A program made the translations under genes and the position numbers. Shown piece after piece: positions 1,591 through 32,410 of a stretch of DNA of 64,000 bases. The notes under the pieces are model-generated. The model saw nothing but the letters and a program-made list of their open reading frames with translations, did not search any database and had not been told where the DNA came from. The stretch comes from Haloplanus natans DSM 17983 (lineage in GTDB: Archaea; Halobacteriota; Halobacteria; Halobacteriales; Haloferacaceae), in NCBI RefSeq assembly GCF_000427685.1, contig NZ_KE386573.1, positions 186,001-250,000 on the forward strand, written 5' to 3'. Numbering within the stretch: position 1 is the first letter of the stretch; the number at the start of each line of letters is the position of its first letter.

Positions 1591-2751
1591 ATGAACGTCA
1601 CAGCCGACCCCATTCACCTCCTGCACGTCGACGACGACCCCCACATCGTCGAGTTGACGGCAACCTTTCTGGAACGCGAGGACGATCGGATCACGGTCAC
1701 GACGGCGATGGACGCCGACGAAGGACTCGACGTTCTGGCGACCGGCGGTGTCGACTGTGTCGTCTCGGATTACAACATGCCGGGCCTGAACGGCATCGAG
1801 TTCCTCGAGACCGTCCGTGCGGACCACCCGAACCTCCCGTTCGTCCTCTTTACCGGCAAGGGGAGCGAGGACGTGGCGAGCGAAGCCATCTCCGCCGGCG
1901 TCAGCGACTACCTCCAGAAGGGCGGCGGTGCCGACGCGTACGCCCTGTTGGCGAACCGGGTCGGAAACCTCGTCGAGAAACATCGGGCAGAACGGGCCCG
2001 CGAGCGCGATCGGATAATCATCACGGAGGCCACGGACGCCATCCTCGTCGTCGGCCCGGACGCGACCGTCACGTACGCCACGCCGTCGACGGAGGCGGTC
2101 TTGGGACGGCGCCCCGACGACCTCCGGGGCACCGACGGCGCGGAACTCATCGTCCCGGAGGATCGCCCGCGGGTGATGGCGGCCTTTGCCGAACTGGTCG
2201 CCGATCCCGGCGGCCGTCGGACGGTCGAGTTCCGCCACGAACGGCCCGATGGCTCCCGGATCTGGATCGAAACGCGCGGACACAACCTCCTCGGCCGGGA
2301 GTTGATCGACGGCGTCGTCATCTACGGTCGCGACGTGACCGACCGGAAAGAACGGGAGGCTGAACTCGAGCGCCGGTCGCGGATCATGGACGAGGCACCG
2401 ATCGGCATCACCCTCAGCGACCCGTCCCGCGAGGACAACCCGCTCGTCTACGCGAACGCGGCGTTCGAAGCGATGACCGGCTACGCGTTCGCGGAGGTCG
2501 ACGGCCGCAACTGTCGGTTCCTGCAGGGCGAGCGGAGCGACCCCGAGGCGGTCGCGTCGATGCGAGAGGCCATCGCCACGCGGACCCCGGCCACGGTCGA
2601 GATTTACAACTACCGGAAGGACGGCACCGAGTTCCGAAACCGGGTGACGATCACGCCCGTCGAGAACGACGTGGGCGAAGTCACGAACTTCGTCGGGTTC
2701 CAGCAACCGGTCTCCGACGGCCGGGACGACGACCGGAAGTCGGCACCCTGA
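1591..2751 (+). CDS. REC-PAS-LOV signalling protein (putative blue-light response regulator without kinase)
   Basis: 386 residues. An N-terminal receiver domain spans about 8-125: acidic pocket DDD at 14-16, phospho-acceptor Asp60 in VVSDYNMPG, and the conserved Lys in FTGKGSED. A PAS domain covers about 140-250. A second PAS domain at about 258-380 carries the LOV signature GRNCRFLQG with Cys308, followed by NYRKDGTEF and a C-terminal NFVGFQQ. In LOV photoreceptors this Cys forms a blue-light flavin adduct and the Asn/Gln/Arg residues hold FMN. No HisKA, HATPase or GGDEF domain follows, so output must pass through partner proteins. Its receiver closely resembles that of the gene at 33891. 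Light sensing is inferred from the motif. Confidence 0.85.
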   Translation: MNVTADPIHLLHVDDDPHIVELTATFLEREDDRITVTTAMDADEGLDVLATGGVDCVVSDYNMPGLNGIEFLETVRADHPNLPFVLFTGKGSEDVASEAISAGVSDYLQKGGGADAYALLANRVGNLVEKHRAERARERDRIIITEATDAILVVGPDATVTYATPSTEAVLGRRPDDLRGTDGAELIVPEDRPRVMAAFAELVADPGGRRTVEFRHERPDGSRIWIETRGHNLLGRELIDGVVIYGRDVTDRKEREAELERRSRIMDEAPIGITLSDPSREDNPLVYANAAFEAMTGYAFAEVDGRNCRFLQGERSDPEAVASMREAIATRTPATVEIYNYRKDGTEFRNRVTITPVENDVGEVTNFVGFQQPVSDGRDDDRKSAP

Positions 2752-2787
2752 GACGGACCGCCGTCGTTCCGGCTGGGACCGCTTCGA

Positions 2788-3483
2788 TCACCCGCTCCCG
2801 TCCCCGTACGGCGCCTCGAAGAACGCCCGCTCCAGTTCGACCGTCCGCCGGAACAGGGCGTCGAGGCGCCGCCGCCGGCGCGCCGAGACGGCCGTTCCCT
2901 CCCGATCCAGTTCCGCTCGGAGCCACGCCACGAAATCGACGAAGGCCGGGTTCGCGTGCAACTCGACCCACTCGTCGAGATAGAACGCGTCGGGACGGGA
3001 GTCGATCCCCGTCGCCCACGTCTCGTACACCCACTCGGCGGGCACGAGGACGGCGAGCGTCTCGGCGTAGCCACCCTGTCGACCGGCGCGTTCGAGTAGG
3101 TCGATAAAAGCACGCGTCGTGGCGTCCGGTTTTGCTTCCGGGTCGCCGGCCAGCGCCGCGAACGACCGCTCGAAGTAGTCGTTCTCCTCGTTCGTGATCG
3201 TACCCAGAAACTCGGCGAGCCGCGCCTTCGCCGCCATCGACGGCGCCTCGCCGAGTGCGTGGCCGAACGTGCCCGTCAACGTCTCGACGAAGGCGTAATC
3301 CTGCTCCAGATACCGGCGGAAGACGGCGTCGTCGACGGTTCCGTCGCCGAGTTCGCGGACGAATCGCCCGTCGACCGCCGCCGTCCAGTCCGGTTCGGAT
3401 CGCTCGCGGAGCCAGTCGGTGAACCGGGCGTCCTCGCGGTCGGCCACGTACGCGTCGAACGTGTCGGGAACGGCGTCGCTCAT
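2788..3483 (-). CDS. TenA/thiaminase-II-like protein lacking the catalytic cysteine
   Basis: 231 residues, all-helical TenA/PQQC-like fold by sequence: RYLEQDYAFVETL, NEENDYFERSF, VPAEWVYETWA and a C-terminal ELERAFFEAPY. TenA proteins hydrolyse the aminopyrimidine of degraded thiamine for salvage. The classical family has a Cys before the conserved Trp/Tyr segment. This protein contains no cysteine at all, so it resembles the TenA_E subgroup, which depends on glutamates. The start at 3483 is the Met that begins the recognisable domain; the frame stays open far upstream but overlaps the divergent oxidoreductase gene. It is divergent from the FAD gene with a 93-nt spacer. Exact substrate is uncertain. 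Confidence 0.78.
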   Translation of the reverse strand: MSDAVPDTFDAYVADREDARFTDWLRERSEPDWTAAVDGRFVRELGDGTVDDAVFRRYLEQDYAFVETLTGTFGHALGEAPSMAAKARLAEFLGTITNEENDYFERSFAALAGDPEAKPDATTRAFIDLLERAGRQGGYAETLAVLVPAEWVYETWATGIDSRPDAFYLDEWVELHANPAFVDFVAWLRAELDREGTAVSARRRRRLDALFRRTVELERAFFEAPYGDGSG

Positions 3484-9480: not shown

Positions 9481-9565
9481 GCCGAGGTAGCCTAGCCCGG
9501 CCAAGGCGGTTGCTTCGAGAGCAACTGTCCGTCAGGACTCGTGAGTTCAAATCTCACCCTCGGCG
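9481..9565 (+). tRNA. tRNA-Ser (CGA anticodon)
   Basis: The acceptor stem GCCGAGG pairs with CCTCGGC (9558-9564), discriminator G. The anticodon stem GTTGC/GCAAC encloses the loop TTCGAGA with anticodon CGA, reading UCG. A long variable arm (TGTCCGTCAGGACT) marks a class II tRNA, as expected for serine. The T arm is GTGAG-TTCAAAT-CTCAC. No intron is seen and CCA is not encoded. Its last 19 nt overlap, antisense, the end of the osmC-like gene. Confidence 0.95.
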
Positions 9566-14668: not shown

Positions 14669-14729
14669 GTGTCGTGATAACACGCCGGGCGCGATAAGCT
14701 GTCGCTCATACTATCGGCTGTAACTGTTT

Positions 14730-14765
14730 CAAGAAATCCGTCACCTCGGGGTGGCGAATTTCTTG
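14730..14765. promoter_or_regulatory. Long inverted repeat upstream of the Rieske fusion gene
   Basis: CAAGAAAT and ATTTCTTG form perfect 8-bp outer arms separated by 20 nt, with inner near-complementary CCGTCACC/GGTGGCGA around a TCGG loop. It lies 62-97 nt upstream of the minus-strand start at 14668. It could be an operator, or an RNA hairpin in read-through transcript from the dehydrogenase gene. It directly adjoins the dispersed palindromic element at 14773. Confidence 0.45.
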
Positions 14766-14772
14766 ACTGACT

Positions 14773-14857
14773 TATACGGATTAGTGTAACTGTTCACCGG
14801 TAGGTCGCCGACCCGTCCTGGCGACCCACTGGTAATGACTTACACTAAACCGTATCA
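14773..14857. repeat. Dispersed palindromic element, copy A
   Basis: An imperfect palindrome with arms of about 37 nt. The left arm runs from ATACGGATTAGTGTAAC to CACCGGTAGGTCGCC, and the right arm complement from TGATACGGTTTAGTGTAAG to CAGTGGGTCGCC. The apical loop is about 10 nt (GACCCGTCCT). Related copies are at 25011 and 32251. Read on the minus strand, its TGATACGG end lies 18 nt after the stop of the dehydrogenase gene. So all three copies sit just 3' of a gene. Confidence 0.75.
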
Positions 14858-14874
14858 CAGCCGGCAGTATCAGC

Positions 14875-15909
14875 TCAGGGTTTCACCAGCACTTTGATCG
14901 CCTCGCGCTCGTCCATCAGGCGGTAGCCCTCGGGGACGCCGTCCAGGTCGACGGTGTGGGTGAATATCGGCGACGGATCGAGCGTCCCGCCGAGCACGTC
15001 GGCCATCAGGTCTTCGGCGTACGCGCGGACGGGTGCGACGCCGCCCCGGAGCGTCACGTTGTCGCCGAACATCCCGTAGAGGTCGAGTTCGTCGACGCCG
15101 TGGGGGACGCCGACGTAGCCCACGGTGCCGCCGGGACGAGCCATCGCGACGGCGCCGTTCATCGACGACGCGGCGCCCACGCACTCGACGACGTGGTTCG
15201 CGCCGCCGTAGGTGAGTTCCCGTACCCGATCGATCGCTTCGTCGCCGCGAGCGGCGACCGTCTCGGTCGCGCCGAACGCCTCGGCGACGGCGAGGCGGTC
15301 CGTGTGGTGGCCAACGGCGACGATTCGCTCCGCGCCCAGCCGTCGCGCGGCGAGGACGGCACACAGGCCGACGGCGCCGTCGCCGACGACGACGCAGGTC
15401 GATCCGGCCTCGACGCCCGCGCTGACGGCGGCGTGGTGGCCCGTTCCCATCACGTCAGTCAGCGCCAGGAGCGCGCGCAGGGTGTCCTCGTCGTCGGCGT
15501 GACGCTCCGGCACCCGGACGAGGGTGCCGTCGGCGTGGGTCGCGCGGACGTACTCGCCCTGTCCGCCGCCGTTGTCCCCGCCCCAGCCGTCGCCGTTCAC
15601 ACAGGAGGTGTGCAGGCCCTTCCGGCAGAACTCGCAGGACCCACAGCTGATGCGGAAGGGGGCGAGGACGCGGTCACCTGGTTCGACCGACCGAACGTCG
15701 TCGCCGACCGCCTCGACGATTCCCATCGGTTCGTGGCCGACGGGGCTCCCCACCTCGCGGTCGCTCTCGCCGCGGTAGAACCAGAGGTCCGAGCCACAGA
15801 CCGCGGTGTGGGTGACGCGGACGACGGCGTCGGTCGGGGAGTCGATTTCGGGTCGTGGTCGTTCCTCGATACGGATGTCGCCGGGGCCGTGGTAGGTGGC
15901 GGCGCGCAT
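14875..15909 (-). CDS. Zinc-dependent medium-chain alcohol dehydrogenase
   Basis: 344 residues. The N-terminal GroES-like catalytic domain contains the zinc ligands of TAVCGSDLW and GHEPMG and the structural-zinc loop CGSCEFCRKGLHTSC. The central NAD(P)-binding Rossmann domain has VVVGDGAVGLCAVLAARRLG. This arrangement is standard for Zn-ADH/threonine-dehydrogenase-like enzymes of 340-350 residues. The sequence GWGGDNGGGQGEYVRA is typical of the branch often annotated as zinc-dependent alcohol dehydrogenases of unknown specificity. It is divergent from the LLM oxidoreductase gene with a 72-nt spacer. Confidence 0.9.
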   Translation of the reverse strand: MRAATYHGPGDIRIEERPRPEIDSPTDAVVRVTHTAVCGSDLWFYRGESDREVGSPVGHEPMGIVEAVGDDVRSVEPGDRVLAPFRISCGSCEFCRKGLHTSCVNGDGWGGDNGGGQGEYVRATHADGTLVRVPERHADDEDTLRALLALTDVMGTGHHAAVSAGVEAGSTCVVVGDGAVGLCAVLAARRLGAERIVAVGHHTDRLAVAEAFGATETVAARGDEAIDRVRELTYGGANHVVECVGAASSMNGAVAMARPGGTVGYVGVPHGVDELDLYGMFGDNVTLRGGVAPVRAYAEDLMADVLGGTLDPSPIFTHTVDLDGVPEGYRLMDEREAIKVLVKP

Positions 15910-23652: not shown

Positions 23653-24142
23653 ATGGCCGGCCAGAACTCCGATTCCACGCCCCCCGAGTCCGCCGCCGAC
23701 GAGGGACACGACGACGTGCTCGCCGATCAGTTCTCCACCGACGAGGTGAACCAGCGAGTCGTCGCCGAGGCATCCGACGAACACGCCGGCGAGGCGTTCC
23801 TCCGGGACTGGGCCGACACGCACGGGCTGGACGACGTGGCGATCACCGTCGACCCCGGCGCCGTCGAACCGGCCATCGACAGGGCGGTGACCGACGGCAC
23901 GATGCTCATGATGGGTGCCACCGAAGGGGGGTCTGCTCTCCCGTCTGGTTCGGAACTCGTTGCATCTGGACGTGATCCACGACGTGGACTGCTCGGTGCT
24001 TTTGGCCGAACGTCCCTCGGAGCGGTCGATCCGCGACCGACTGTTCGGCGCTCCGTCCCGTGATCGCCACCCGGCACGGGCGTTCCGGGACCGCGCCGAA
24101 GCGACCGTCGGCGCCGAACCGGCCGGGACTGCCGACGAGTGA
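23653..24142 (+). pseudogene. UspA-domain protein with a +1 frameshift in a G6 run
   Basis: The frame from ATG 23653 reads an acidic USP-like protein up to TDGTMLMMGATEGG. There a run of six G (23925-23931 region) shifts the frame. With one G removed the protein continues GLLSRLVRNSLHLDVIHDVD, CSVLLAERPSERSIRDRLFG and ends at TGA 24142, giving about 163 residues. The restored piece has the typical UspA end (GATERGLLSRLVRG...CSVLLAERP). It resembles the UspA tail of haloarchaeal amino-acid permeases, but no permease precedes it. It may be a true mutation or a homopolymer sequencing error. Confidence 0.7.
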
Positions 24143-24185
24143 TCGCCGGAGGGAAGCTTTTCACCGTCCCGTCCAACGGCTGTGT

Positions 24186-25013
24186 ATGGTCTCGTCCTCG
24201 CTCCCGTTCGACGATTCGACGACAGATCGCCTCCGGGCGCTCGTCGTCGTCCTGATCGTCTCCAGTCTCGGCCTCGGTGCCGGCGTCGCCCTCGTCGTCG
24301 GGCTCTCGCTTCTCCTGGTCGGTGTCGGGCTGAACCCGTCGCCGTTCACCCTCCTCGTGATCTCGCTCGTCTCGATCCAGGGACTCGCGTTCGGCGGCGT
24401 TGCCCTCATCTATCTCCGCCTCCGGGATCGCCCCGTCACGAGCGTCGGCCTCCGACTCCCGTCGGTTCGGGAACTCCTGATCGTCGTGGCGGGCTACGCG
24501 ACGGCATTCGTCGCCGCCATCACCGGCGCCTTTCTCATCAGTATCACCGGCGCCCCGGCGGGTGAGAATCAGGTGGCCGAGTTCGCCAGCGCCGATCCGA
24601 CCGTCCTCCTCTGGCTGATCCCCGCCTCCTTTCTCCTCATCGGTCCCGGCGAGGAACTGCTCTTTCGCGGCATCGTCCAAGGGCGTCTCCGGGAGACGTT
24701 CGACCGCGTCCCCGGTGTCGTCATCGCGAGCGCGCTCTTTGCTGCCGTCCACTTCGTCGCCCTGACCGGCGGCGCCGGCGGCCGCATCGTCACCATCGCC
24801 GTCCTCTTTTTCCCCGCACTCGTCTTCGGGAGCGTCTACGAACTCACGGACAACCTCGTCGTCCCCGCCTTGGTTCACGGTGCGTACAACGCGACGCTCT
24901 TTGCCCTCGCCTACCTCGCCATTCGGCTCTCGGAGTCGGGGGCGTTCCCGCAGGGCGACGGGGCCGGCCCAGCCACACTCGTCGTCGACGCCGCTGTGCT
25001 TCTCCCCCACTGA
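24186..25013 (+). CDS. CPBP-family intramembrane glutamic protease (Abi/CAAX-like)
   Basis: 275 residues with about eight hydrophobic segments. The CPBP motifs are clear: GPGEELLFRGIVQGRL (motif 1, EExxxR), FAAVHFVALTG (motif 2, FxxxH) and VPALVHGAYNATLF (motif 3, HxxxN). The family includes Rce1 and many uncharacterised prokaryotic membrane proteases. The start at 24186 leaves a short polar N-terminus before helix 1. Its stop codon TGA is also the first three bases of palindromic element copy B. Confidence 0.88.
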   Translation: MVSSSLPFDDSTTDRLRALVVVLIVSSLGLGAGVALVVGLSLLLVGVGLNPSPFTLLVISLVSIQGLAFGGVALIYLRLRDRPVTSVGLRLPSVRELLIVVAGYATAFVAAITGAFLISITGAPAGENQVAEFASADPTVLLWLIPASFLLIGPGEELLFRGIVQGRLRETFDRVPGVVIASALFAAVHFVALTGGAGGRIVTIAVLFFPALVFGSVYELTDNLVVPALVHGAYNATLFALAYLAIRLSESGAFPQGDGAGPATLVVDAAVLLPH

Positions 25014-25088
25014 TACTGTTTACTGTAACTGTGTACCGACGGTTCGCCGACCCACCTTGGCGAACCATCGGTACTGACGTACCGCAAC
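25011..25088. repeat. Dispersed palindromic element, copy B
   Basis: It starts TGATACTGTTTACTGTAACT and continues GTACCGACGGTTCGCC; the complementary arm GGCGAACCATCGGTACTGACG follows after a 10-nt loop (GACCCACCTT). The central 16-18 bp arms pair almost perfectly and the outer parts are more diverged. The TGA at 25011-25013 is the stop codon of the CPBP gene. It lies between the CPBP and tgtA genes, both on the plus strand. Confidence 0.78.
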
Positions 25089-25139
25089 CCGCTCGAGCGG
25101 AACGGAACCCTTACCGCCGCGCCCGTGAAAGCCGGGGCC

Positions 25140-30253: not shown

Positions 30254-32077
30254 ATGTCATCGCCCGGACGGCGCGACGTGATTCGGGTCGACCTTTCGGC
30301 GGGCACCGTCGTCCGCGAACGCGTCCCCGACGACTGGCGACGTGACTTTCTGGGGGGCAAGGGCCTCGGCGCCCGCTACCTCTACGACGAGCTCGACGCG
30401 GGGATCGACCCGCTCGGCCCCGACAACCGCCTCGCCTTCTTCGTCGGGCCGCTCTCGGGCTATCTCCCCGCCGAGTCGCGCTACGCCGCCGTCACCAAAT
30501 CGCCGCTGACCGGCGCCTTCCTCGATTCCTACAGCGGCGGCTCCTTCGCGGACGCCCTCGCCGTCGCGCTCCCCGACGCGTTCGGCCTGCTCGTCCAGGG
30601 GGCGGCCGACGAACCGGTGCGACTCACCGTCGCGGACGGCGAGGCGGCGCTCCGGCCGGCGGACGATCTGTGGGGGGCCGACGCGGCCGCCGTCGACGAC
30701 GCCCTCGACGGGGCCGTCGCCTGTATCGGCCCCGCCGGCGAGAACGAGGTGGCGTACGCGACGATCGCTTCCGACGGCGGCGACCACCACGCCGGCCGGG
30801 GCGGCGCCGGGGCCGTGATGGGCGCCAAGCGGCTGAAAGCCGTCGTCGTCCACGGCGACTCGCCCGAACCGACGCCGGAACTCGCCGAACTCCGGCAGCG
30901 GTACGACGACGCCTACCGCGACGACGACACCGGCCGCTGGCAGGCCGCCGGCGAGACGGTCGAGAGCGTCGACTTCGCCAACGAGGTTGGCGTCCTTTCC
31001 ACCCGCGGCTGGCAGGCCGGCACGTTCGACGACGCCGCCGATATCGGCGTCGAGGCGGTTCGCGAGGCGTCGACGGGCCGGGAGAACGAGAGCGACGCGG
31101 TGCCCGGCGGCTTCCGTGTCGAGGCCGCGGACGGCGAGTCGGAGTCGGTGCCACGGGGCGGCGCCCTCATGTCGCTCGGCGCCGGCCTCGGGGTCGACGA
31201 CTTCGACGACGTGGCCCGTCTCGGAGCCACCTGTGATCTGCTGGGGATGGACGCCATCAGCGCCGGCAACGCCGTCGCGTGGGCGATGCGGGCGGCGGAC
31301 GCCGACGCTGTCGACTTCGAGGTCGCTGACCTCGCGTTCGGCGACGCCGACGCCGCCGAGGCGTTGCTGACGGCCATCGCCGCCCGCTCGACGACCCTCG
31401 GCGATACGCTCGCCGACGGCGTCGACGCCGCCCGCGAGCGCTACGGCGCCGGGACGGTGCCGACGGTGAAGTCGATGGAGCTTCCGGCCTACGATCCCCG
31501 CGGCGCCGCGGGGATGGCGCTCGCGTACGCCACCAGCGACCGTGGCGGCTGTCACCGCCGCGCCCGGCCGGTCGAGCGCGAGGCGTTCGCCCGCGACGAG
31601 TGGACGACCGCCGACCGCGTCGCTACCGTCGTGGGCGCACAGAACGTCCGCTCGACGCTCTGGAGCCTCGTCGTCGACGACTTCGCCGGCGAGACCATGT
31701 GGGAGGACCTCGGCGCCGAGTGGCTGTCGGCCGTCGGCCTCGACTACGACCGCGACTCGCTGGCGACGCTCGGCGAACGCGTCTGGACGCTCGTCCGCCT
31801 GTTCAACGTCCGCGAGGGCTTTGCCCGCGCGGACGACTCCCTGCCCGAACTGTTCGAAGACCCGCTCCCCGACGGCCCGGCCGCCGGCCGCACCGTCGAC
31901 CGCGAGGCGTTCGATGCCATGCTCGACGCCTACTACGCCGCCCGTGGCTGGTCGCCCGACGGCCGCCCCACGGCCGAGACGGTCGATCGGCTTGGGCTCA
32001 CCGCGGTCGTCGACGACCAAACGCCACTCGGCGCGGCGGCCGCCCGGACCGATTCCGACTCCGACCACACTCCGTGA
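30254..32077 (+). CDS. AOR-family protein lacking three Fe-S ligand cysteines
   Basis: 607 residues with the aldehyde ferredoxin oxidoreductase layout: LGGKGLGARYLYDEL, GPLSGYLPAESRYAAVTKSP, IGPAGENEVAYA, GRGGAGAVMGAKRLKAVVV and a C-terminal catalytic domain (SMELPAYDPRGAAGMALAYA). The AOR [4Fe-4S] cluster normally uses a CxxCxxxC motif plus a distant Cys. Here the motif region has no Cys (STGRENESDAVPGGFRV), and only the distal one remains (Cys433 in GGCHRR). The pterin-binding motifs persist. It could be a cluster-free or non-redox paralogue. The intact family member is at 56359. A GTGA overlap joins it to a zinc-ribbon gene. Confidence 0.85.
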   Translation: MSSPGRRDVIRVDLSAGTVVRERVPDDWRRDFLGGKGLGARYLYDELDAGIDPLGPDNRLAFFVGPLSGYLPAESRYAAVTKSPLTGAFLDSYSGGSFADALAVALPDAFGLLVQGAADEPVRLTVADGEAALRPADDLWGADAAAVDDALDGAVACIGPAGENEVAYATIASDGGDHHAGRGGAGAVMGAKRLKAVVVHGDSPEPTPELAELRQRYDDAYRDDDTGRWQAAGETVESVDFANEVGVLSTRGWQAGTFDDAADIGVEAVREASTGRENESDAVPGGFRVEAADGESESVPRGGALMSLGAGLGVDDFDDVARLGATCDLLGMDAISAGNAVAWAMRAADADAVDFEVADLAFGDADAAEALLTAIAARSTTLGDTLADGVDAARERYGAGTVPTVKSMELPAYDPRGAAGMALAYATSDRGGCHRRARPVEREAFARDEWTTADRVATVVGAQNVRSTLWSLVVDDFAGETMWEDLGAEWLSAVGLDYDRDSLATLGERVWTLVRLFNVREGFARADDSLPELFEDPLPDGPAAGRTVDREAFDAMLDAYYAARGWSPDGRPTAETVDRLGLTAVVDDQTPLGAAAARTDSDSDHTP

Positions 32078-32253
32078 CCGACCGCGACACGCCCGCTTCG
32101 AACCCTTCGCGCCCCCACGACTGTTACCGGTGTGGCGCGACCATCGATCCCGGTCACGTCTACGGCGCCCTCGATCTGCTCGACGCCGACGGCGACCTGC
32201 GGGTGCTGCTCTGTCGCTCCTGTTCGGCCGAGTTGCGCGCGTTTCTGGACTGA
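32074..32253 (+). CDS. 59-residue zinc-ribbon protein coupled to the AOR-like gene
   Basis: It starts at GTG 32074 inside the AOR-like stop (GTGA overlap), a strong sign of translational coupling. It carries two CxxC knuckles, CYRCG and CRSC, about 30 residues apart with a GHVYGALDLLDADGDLRVLL hairpin between them. This is a typical four-cysteine zinc ribbon. The stop TGA (32251-32253) is the first three bases of palindromic element copy C. Its role is unknown; it may be a chaperone or partner of the AOR-like protein. Confidence 0.72.
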   Translation: MTDRDTPASNPSRPHDCYRCGATIDPGHVYGALDLLDADGDLRVLLCRSCSAELRAFLD

Positions 32254-32332
32254 TACGGTTTATCGCCCGTCAGTACCGGTGGTTCGCCGGACTGTCTCGA
32301 CGAACCAGTGTACACGGTTACGATACTCCGTA
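32251..32332. repeat. Dispersed palindromic element, copy C
   Basis: It begins TGATACGGTTTATCGCCCGT, continues CAGTACCGGTGGTTCGCC, and after a short loop (GGACTGTCTC) the complementary GACGAACCAGTGTACACGG and ACGATACTCCGTAC follow. The arms are imperfect but clearly related to copies A and B in both sequence and size. As in copy B, its first three bases are the stop codon of the upstream plus-strand gene. Confidence 0.75.
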
Positions 32333-32410
32333 CGAGACGGATCGCCGTGTCCGGGACGGCGATCCGTCACAGTGCGGGACCCTTTTACCCCTCGCGGGCT
32401 ACCGGATCGT

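What the first reader, a model, noticed from the sequence alone, without database searches (positions are those of the whole stretch)
25011..25088. A dispersed ~80-bp palindromic element, three copies, each just 3' of a gene
Copies at 14773-14857, 25011-25088 and 32251-32332 share the layout TGATAC(G)GTTT...TAAC...ACCGG-GGTTCGCC, a ~10-nt loop, then the complementary arm. Sequence and size agree although the arms are diverged. All sit at the end of a gene (dehydrogenase, CPBP protease, zinc ribbon), none inside one. This looks like a haloarchaeal palindromic repeat family or MITE that also works as a transcription terminator.
Basis: seen in the sequence. Interest (0 to 1): 0.65.

Follow-up and report, generated by a model that had tools for sequence, protein, structure and literature searches.

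The report
Stop-codon-inserting palindromic mobile element in haloarchaea
The three hairpins are copies of an 80-base jumping DNA element, present at least 123 times in this salt-loving archaeon, that lands on gene stop codons and duplicates three bases, so it sits at gene ends without breaking the gene; the enzyme that moves it was not found.

Summary
A covariance model finds at least 123 distinct copies in this genome, copies in all 12 genomes of its genus and in 46 of 148 of its family. A second family (B) is in 105 of 293 genomes of the order. Each copy is an 80-bp imperfect palindrome, TACGGTTTAnTGTAAGTCATTACCGGTGGGTCGCC-loop-mirror arm, flanked by a 3-bp direct repeat TNA (87/123 identical triplets; 79 of them TGA or TCA). 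Relatives lacking a copy have one TNA at that point, so the repeat is a target-site duplication and the element is mobile. In 71/123 copies the duplicated triplet is exactly the host gene's stop codon (3% of TNA sites generally); none of the 123 lies inside an intact reading frame. That, not a terminator role, explains the gene-end position: orientation to the host gene is 36:35 and there is no T-tract. The target is a 9-bp palindrome GWC-TNA-GWC. Arms covary, three mispairs are conserved, and related families share only TGTAAGTCA/AACAGTTACA. Window copy 1 is nested in a family-B copy. I call it MITE-like, moved in trans by an unidentified transposase. A 1.5-kb candidate autonomous element proved to be an ISH8-type IS inserted into a copy.

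The parts
14772..14774 (.). left flanking triplet (TTA) of family-A copy 1; target inside family-B element
   Evidence: TTA / TCA flanks, one mismatch
14775..14854 (-). family-A element copy 1 (80 bp, full length), orientation by model R1
   Evidence: 99.7 bits, E 1.9e-24
14855..14857 (.). right flanking triplet (TCA) of copy 1
14706..14708 (.). left 3-bp target duplication (TCA) of the family-B element
14709..14774 (+). family-B palindromic element, left 66 bp (interrupted by family-A copy 1)
   Evidence: R2: 14706-14783, E 9.7e-13; joined flanks repeated dozens of times in relatives
14858..14869 (+). family-B element, right 12 bp, after the nested copy
14870..14872 (.). right 3-bp target duplication (TCA) of the family-B element, 2 bp beyond the stop codon (14875-14877) of the minus-strand dehydrogenase gene
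25011..25013 (+). stop codon TGA of the CPBP/Rce1 protease ORF 24060-25013, also the left target triplet of copy 2
   Evidence: empty site GTCTGAGCC in G062
25014..25093 (-). family-A element copy 2 (right arm end decayed)
   Evidence: 79.1 bits
25094..25096 (.). right flanking triplet CGA (TGA with one change)
32251..32253 (+). stop codon TGA of ORF 31600-32253, also the left target triplet of copy 3
32254..32332 (+). family-A element copy 3 (decayed, 79 bp)
   Evidence: 64.6 bits
32333..32335 (.). right flanking triplet CGA (TGA with one change)

Best explanation
The element is a non-autonomous, MITE-like mobile element: an 80-bp hairpin-forming inverted repeat with distinct left and right arms, inserted by a transposase acting in trans. 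SHOWN: it inserts at a 9-bp pseudo-palindromic target, consensus GWC-TNA-GWC, and duplicates the central TNA. Most often the TNA is the TGA stop codon of a gene. The left copy of the duplicated TGA still ends the gene, so the protein is unchanged and the element becomes the first 80 bp of the 3' untranslated region. SHOWN: dozens to over a hundred copies per genome, clean single-TNA empty sites in relatives, identical copies in some genomes (recent activity), and nesting of families in each other. INFERRED: stop codons are hit because the preferred target looks like the common haloarchaeal gene end GAC/GTC-TGA-G, and insertions inside reading frames are removed by selection. INFERRED: the enzyme is a DDE transposase with IS5/PIF-Harbinger-like target choice, and it needs the folded or palindromic arrangement, because arms covary and three mispairs (G.G, C.C, A.A) beside TGTAA/TTACA are conserved. 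NOT SHOWN: which gene encodes the enzyme. The confidence given is for 'mobile MITE-like element with TNA duplication, placed at stop codons'; for the IS5/PIF-like enzyme alone it is about 0.45.
For: Copy number and spread. Target duplication: 87/123 identical flanking triplets, 86 of form TNA (TGA/TGA 40, TCA/TCA 39, TTA 5, TAA 2), against about 2 expected. Empty sites in relatives with a single TNA: 158244 in G046 and G106 (GGACTGAGCG), 623237 in G106 (CTCAGTAGTCG), 2007906 in G046, 1175180 in G046, window copy 2 in G062; G096 is filled at the copy-2 stop codon with TGA..TGA. Stop codons: 71/123 exact against 42/1240 control TNA sites; 0/123 in a spanning reading frame against 671/1240. Independent RefSeq annotation: in Haloarcula hispanica pHH400 both copies examined end exactly on annotated stop codons (CPBP CDS ends at 263210, M48 protease CDS ends at 293447). 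Target logo. Arm covariation: 174 double changes in 104 copies against 86 expected from shuffles (maximum 108) and 18-44 for slid pairings; family B 29 against 9. Identical copies: 12 identical TCA-flanked copies in G323, which is Natribaculum breve by coordinates.
Against: No autonomous element with these ends was found. In G245, where exact matches to the end were all listed, all pairs but one are 57-63 bp apart, and the exception is an ISH8-type IS inserted in a copy. In G083 the ends examined belong to short elements, and PF01609 transposases of three genomes lack such ends. 36/123 copies lack identical flanking triplets (decay is assumed). The stop-codon statistic rests on a simple codon model with incomplete sensitivity, so the fold enrichment over non-coding TNA sites is inflated. 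Even at well-matched target sequences stops exceed expectation (28 of 35 copies against 6 of 40 background sites), so either my target model is incomplete or stop codons are preferred for another reason.
Confidence: 0.85

Rival explanations
1. A REPIN-like system: a domesticated, non-mobile transposase (as RAYT is for bacterial REPINs) recognises the folded hairpin and spreads the element; no autonomous parent exists.
For: No parent element found despite recent activity; extragenic, hairpin-forming, compensatory changes in the spacer as described for REPINs (PMC3116915); conserved mispairs inside the stem as in ssDNA-recognised hairpins; terminal stop-codon overlap also reported for GTAG REPs (PMC3733652).
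Against: IS200/HUH-type transposition, the mechanism proposed for REPINs, is not expected to make a target duplication (own knowledge), whereas TNA duplication is clear here. No candidate enzyme identified. A DDE enzyme domesticated in this way would fit both, so this overlaps with the main reading.
Confidence: 0.3
2. A transcription terminator or mRNA 3'-end stabiliser kept by selection at gene ends.
For: Strong predicted hairpins (-30 to -52 kcal/mol) at gene 3' ends; REPs elsewhere have been proposed to do this (PMC3733652).
Against: Random orientation 36:35, no T-tract enrichment, no bias to convergent gene ends, most tested sites empty in the nearest relatives, and position explained by target choice.
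Confidence: 0.12
3. A structured regulatory RNA or protein-binding palindrome multiplied by gene conversion rather than transposition.
For: Covariation and a conserved internal-loop motif.
Against: 3-bp target duplications, precise empty sites, identical copies at unrelated genes, random orientation.
Confidence: 0.03

Closest known systems
MITEs of prokaryotes (review PMC10969869), including haloarchaeal MITEs of Haloquadratum (PMC3119063)
   Same: Short, non-coding, terminal inverted repeats, target duplication, many copies, intergenic, presumed to move in trans.
   Different: Only 80 bp and palindromic along its whole length; arms covary; targets stop codons; no parent IS with the same ends found.
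REPINs with RAYTs (PMC3116915)
   Same: Extragenic, hairpin-forming doublets with compensatory changes, high copy number, no self-contained parent.
   Different: Makes a 3-bp target duplication; no GTAG tag; archaeal; no RAYT link shown.
PATE and SMR elements of Haloquadratum walsbyi (PMC3119063)
   Same: Short palindromic or inverted-repeat mobile repeats of haloarchaea; SMRs are 80-110 bp and insert into other palindromic elements, as seen here by nesting.
   Different: PATEs have no terminal inverted repeats, and PATEs and SMRs are reported to cause no target duplication.
IS5/PIF-Harbinger (PHIS) transposons, especially the NuwaII group (PMC4482050)
   Same: 3-bp TNA duplication with preferred target C|TNA|G, the core of the GWC-TNA-GWC target here.
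   Different: No PHIS transposase linked to the element; PF13359 is absent from eight element-bearing genomes.

Membership tests
MITE | Short non-coding element with terminal inverted repeats | tested here: met
   80 bp, imperfect inverted repeat end to end
MITE | Target-site duplication on insertion | tested here: met
   TNA duplication in 86/123, empty sites with one TNA
MITE | Multiple dispersed copies | tested here: met
   At least 123 in this genome
MITE | Ends shared with an autonomous transposon that supplies the transposase | tested here: inconclusive
   None found in G083, G245 or among PF01609 genes of G000, G083 and G106; search not exhaustive
REPIN (RAYT-dependent) | Two inverted REP units forming a hairpin, extragenic, conserved ends with covarying spacer | tested here: met
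REPIN (RAYT-dependent) | No target duplication (HUH single-strand mechanism) | tested here: not met
   TNA duplicated
REPIN (RAYT-dependent) | Associated RAYT gene | not tested
   Y1 transposases were not searched
SMR/PATE of Haloquadratum | No target duplication | tested here: not met
   against PMC3119063
IS5/PIF-Harbinger-mobilised MITE | 3-bp TNA duplication in a palindromic target | tested here: met
   NuwaII C|TNA|G in PMC4482050
IS5/PIF-Harbinger-mobilised MITE | Transposase of that superfamily acting on these ends | tested here: inconclusive
   PF13359 absent in 8 genomes; PF01609 genes without matching ends
Intrinsic transcription terminator | Orientation to the gene and T-tract after the hairpin | tested here: not met
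   36:35 orientation; no T enrichment
Intrinsic transcription terminator | RNA 3' ends at the site | not testable with these tools
   No RNA data

The most novel reading that the evidence does not exclude
An order-wide haloarchaeal superfamily of hairpin elements without any autonomous parent, spread by a host-resident (domesticated) DDE-type transposase that reads a folded or mismatched palindrome (TGTAAGTCA/AACAGTTACA) and targets stop codons with a 3-bp TNA duplication: an archaeal analogue of REPIN/RAYT with a different chemistry.
Probability: 0.3. Interest if true: 0.78.

Novelty: new variant of a known kind. Interest (0 to 1): 0.6.

Why it matters
It gives a concrete example of a prokaryotic mobile element that reaches high copy number harmlessly by landing on stop codons and rebuilding them through its own target duplication. 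It accounts for extragenic palindromic DNA at gene ends in many haloarchaea, which could otherwise be misread as terminators. It provides a ready system (copies in Haloarcula hispanica) for finding an unidentified archaeal transposase and for asking why the stem must covary and keep three mispairs.

Tried and rejected
(1) Terminator: rejected as the reason for position. (2) Autonomous parent in G245: a pair of ends 1491 bp apart with TCA/TCA flanks and a 437-aa IS4-family transposase looked like the parent. It is 1403 bp of ISH8-type IS (transposase up to 100% identical to annotated IS4-family/ISH8-like ones) inserted into a copy with a 10-bp duplication CTTTACGAAC, so rejected. (3) PF01609 transposases of G000, G083 and G106: those whose ends could be defined have GAGGGTGTCATAGAAC or GGCTGTGTTGAATC type ends, and none has matching ends nearby. 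(4) PF13359: absent. (5) Genes lying between close pairs of copies: ordinary genes, no transposase. (6) Rfam: only a tRNA in the window. (7) Plasmid and phage collections and genome contigs with family A: no match; family B and variants do match named haloarchaeal plasmids. (8) An apparent strand bias of duplicated triplets in G323 (all TCA) is probably an artefact of sorting by model score, which includes the triplet.

Full report
WHAT IS THERE. The three palindromes are real and homologous. A covariance model from 21 genomic copies recovers the window copies at 14772-14857, 25011-25096 and 32251-32335. In the whole genome it gives 150 scored matches (a cap; both strands of a palindrome can match) at 123 distinct places, and a few further places were seen by pattern or BLAST, so 123 is a lower bound. 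All 12 genomes of the genus carry copies, as do 46 of 148 sampled genomes of the family in 14 of 28 genera.

ANATOMY. The element is 80 bp. Left arm TACGGTTTAnTGTAAGTCATTACCGGTGGGTCGCC, a 10-nt loop, right arm GGCGACCCACCGGTgAACAGTTACAnTAATCCGTA. Over 104 ungapped copies about 82% of facing positions pair. Double (compensatory) changes number 174 against 86 expected from column shuffles and 18-44 for slid pairings. Three facing positions never pair and are almost invariant: G.G (97/104), C.C (102/104) and A.A/A.C. Relatedness of the copies inflates such counts, but family B, aligned independently, shows the same pattern: conserved outer stem, inner stem variable with compensation, 10 of 32 pairs with double changes against 4.9 expected. 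The loop occurs in both orientations about equally (GACCCGTTCT 12 / AGAACGGGTC 7; GGACCGTCTT 11 / AAGACGGTCC 12), as expected if the segment between the inner arms inverts now and then.

MOBILITY. 87 of 123 copies are flanked by identical triplets and 86 of these are TNA: TGA 40, TCA 39, TTA 5, TAA 2. Joining the flanks of 20 copies and searching five relatives gave clean empty sites with one TNA, for example GAGGACTGAGCG in G046 against GAGGACTGA-[80 bp]-TGAGCG here, and CTCAGTAGTCG in G106 against TCA-[80 bp]-TCAGTAGTCG. Window copy 2 is absent from G062, G106 and others; G096 carries an element at the same stop codon with TGA..TGA. These are target-site duplications, so the element transposes, and most tested sites differ between congeners.

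TARGET. The flanks give the logo GWC-TNA-GWC, a 9-bp pseudo-palindrome, in copies at stop codons and in the others. The core equals the C|TNA|G target of NuwaII transposons of the IS5-related PHIS superfamily (PMC4482050). In 71 of 123 copies the duplicated triplet is exactly the stop codon of a gene called by a codon model, against 42 of 1240 TNA sites in the window; no copy lies in a reading frame that spans the joined flanks, against 671 of 1240 control sites. The gene caller misses some genes, so both the 71 and the control are underestimates and the fold enrichment is only indicative. RefSeq annotation of Haloarcula hispanica plasmid pHH400 confirms it independently: the two copies examined end exactly at the annotated stop codons of a CPBP protease (CDS end 263210) and an M48 protease (CDS end 293447). 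In Halomicrobium LC1Hm one copy lies 51 bp past an annotated stop and one in sequence without a listed gene, so the preference is not absolute. Among sites matching the logo well, stops are still over-represented (28 of 35 copies, 6 of 40 background sites). Selection against in-frame insertions plus the logo may therefore not be the whole story.

SUPERFAMILY. Joining the flanks of window copy 1 revealed a second element (family B), TCA-[TACTATCGGCTGTAACTGTTTCAAGAAATCC...]-TCA at 14706-14872, into which family-A copy 1 has inserted at TTA. The reverse nesting (B in A) occurs in G106 (L267). The family-B model matches 105 of 293 genomes of the order in 36 of 87 genera. It also scores family-A copies, so that count is for related elements together. 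Named hosts include Halomicrobium katesii, Haloarcula hispanica, Halomicrobium mukohataei, Natribaculum breve and a Haloplanus plasmid. G323 matches Natribaculum breve by coordinates and holds roughly 120 copies (243 end matches), many identical. Families A, B and C share the architecture and TGTAAGTCA...(A)CAGTT(A/C)CA, while the rest of the stems differ yet still pair.

MECHANISM. Shown: insertion at TNA with duplication, preservation of the stop codon, orientation independence, recent activity in some genomes. Inferred: a DDE transposase in trans, IS5/PIF-like in target choice, acting on an element whose palindromic structure matters. Not shown: the enzyme. The one candidate autonomous copy (G245, 1491 bp between ends) is an ISH8-type IS inserted into an element with a 10-bp duplication. 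Either the parent is extinct or elsewhere, or the enzyme is host-resident as RAYTs are for REPINs (PMC3116915).

TERMINATOR CLAIM. Orientation to the host gene is 36:35, T-rich 8-mers after the element are as rare as after ordinary stops, and downstream neighbours are tandem/convergent/none 34/19/18 against 25/17/18 for ordinary stops. The gene-end position does not need a terminator function. An effect on RNA remains untested.

KNOWN OR NEW. It works like a MITE and meets the tested MITE criteria except a demonstrated parent. It resembles REPINs in hairpin covariation but differs by its target duplication. Haloquadratum PATEs and SMRs are described as making no target duplication (PMC3119063). 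The literature searches in the open-access library returned no description of this family; subscription literature and ISfinder could not be searched. GTAG REPs of bacteria have been reported to supply stop codons (TAG) to flanking genes (PMC3733652), a parallel for which no target duplication is described there.

Noticed in passing
window 14706-14872: Nested insertion: family-A copy 1 sits inside a family-B palindromic element behind the dehydrogenase gene; the 'second hairpin' CAAGAAATCCGTCACC-TCGG-GGTGGCGAATTTCTTG is the family-B inner stem.
   Followed up: yes
L261-L263 (G083): Third family (C), TAGTAGCCTTTGTAAGTCA..., about 80 bp, same architecture, with flanks that do not show the TNA duplication.
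   Followed up: partly
L316, L317, L320, L323 (Natribaculum breve, G323): Further palindromic elements with ends TACTGCCGGACRAMA... and inner CGATCGCACTCGAGACGC, about 77-108 bp, some with TNA flanks.
   Followed up: no
all family-A copies: The loop occurs in either orientation relative to the asymmetric arms at about 1:1, suggesting frequent inversion between the inner arms.
   Followed up: partly
L339 about 1620-3023 (G245:C1:2844120-2845522): ISH8-type IS (1403 bp, ends CATYCGTCTTTAGCTAAGA) inserted into a family-B-like element with 10-bp duplication CTTTACGAAC.
   Followed up: yes
G000:C1:174498-175164 (L006, L256): A family-A copy whose outer arm is interrupted by the end (GAGGGTGTCATAGAAC) of a truncated transposase element.
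   Followed up: partly
G000:C7:2252886 and 2258969 (L041, L042): Two identical copies with identical near flanks 6 kb apart, so probably a segmental duplication rather than two insertions; the same gene end is counted twice in the statistics.
   Followed up: no
window 9481-9565: tRNA gene (Rfam RF00005), 85 bases, the only Rfam match in the window.
   Followed up: no
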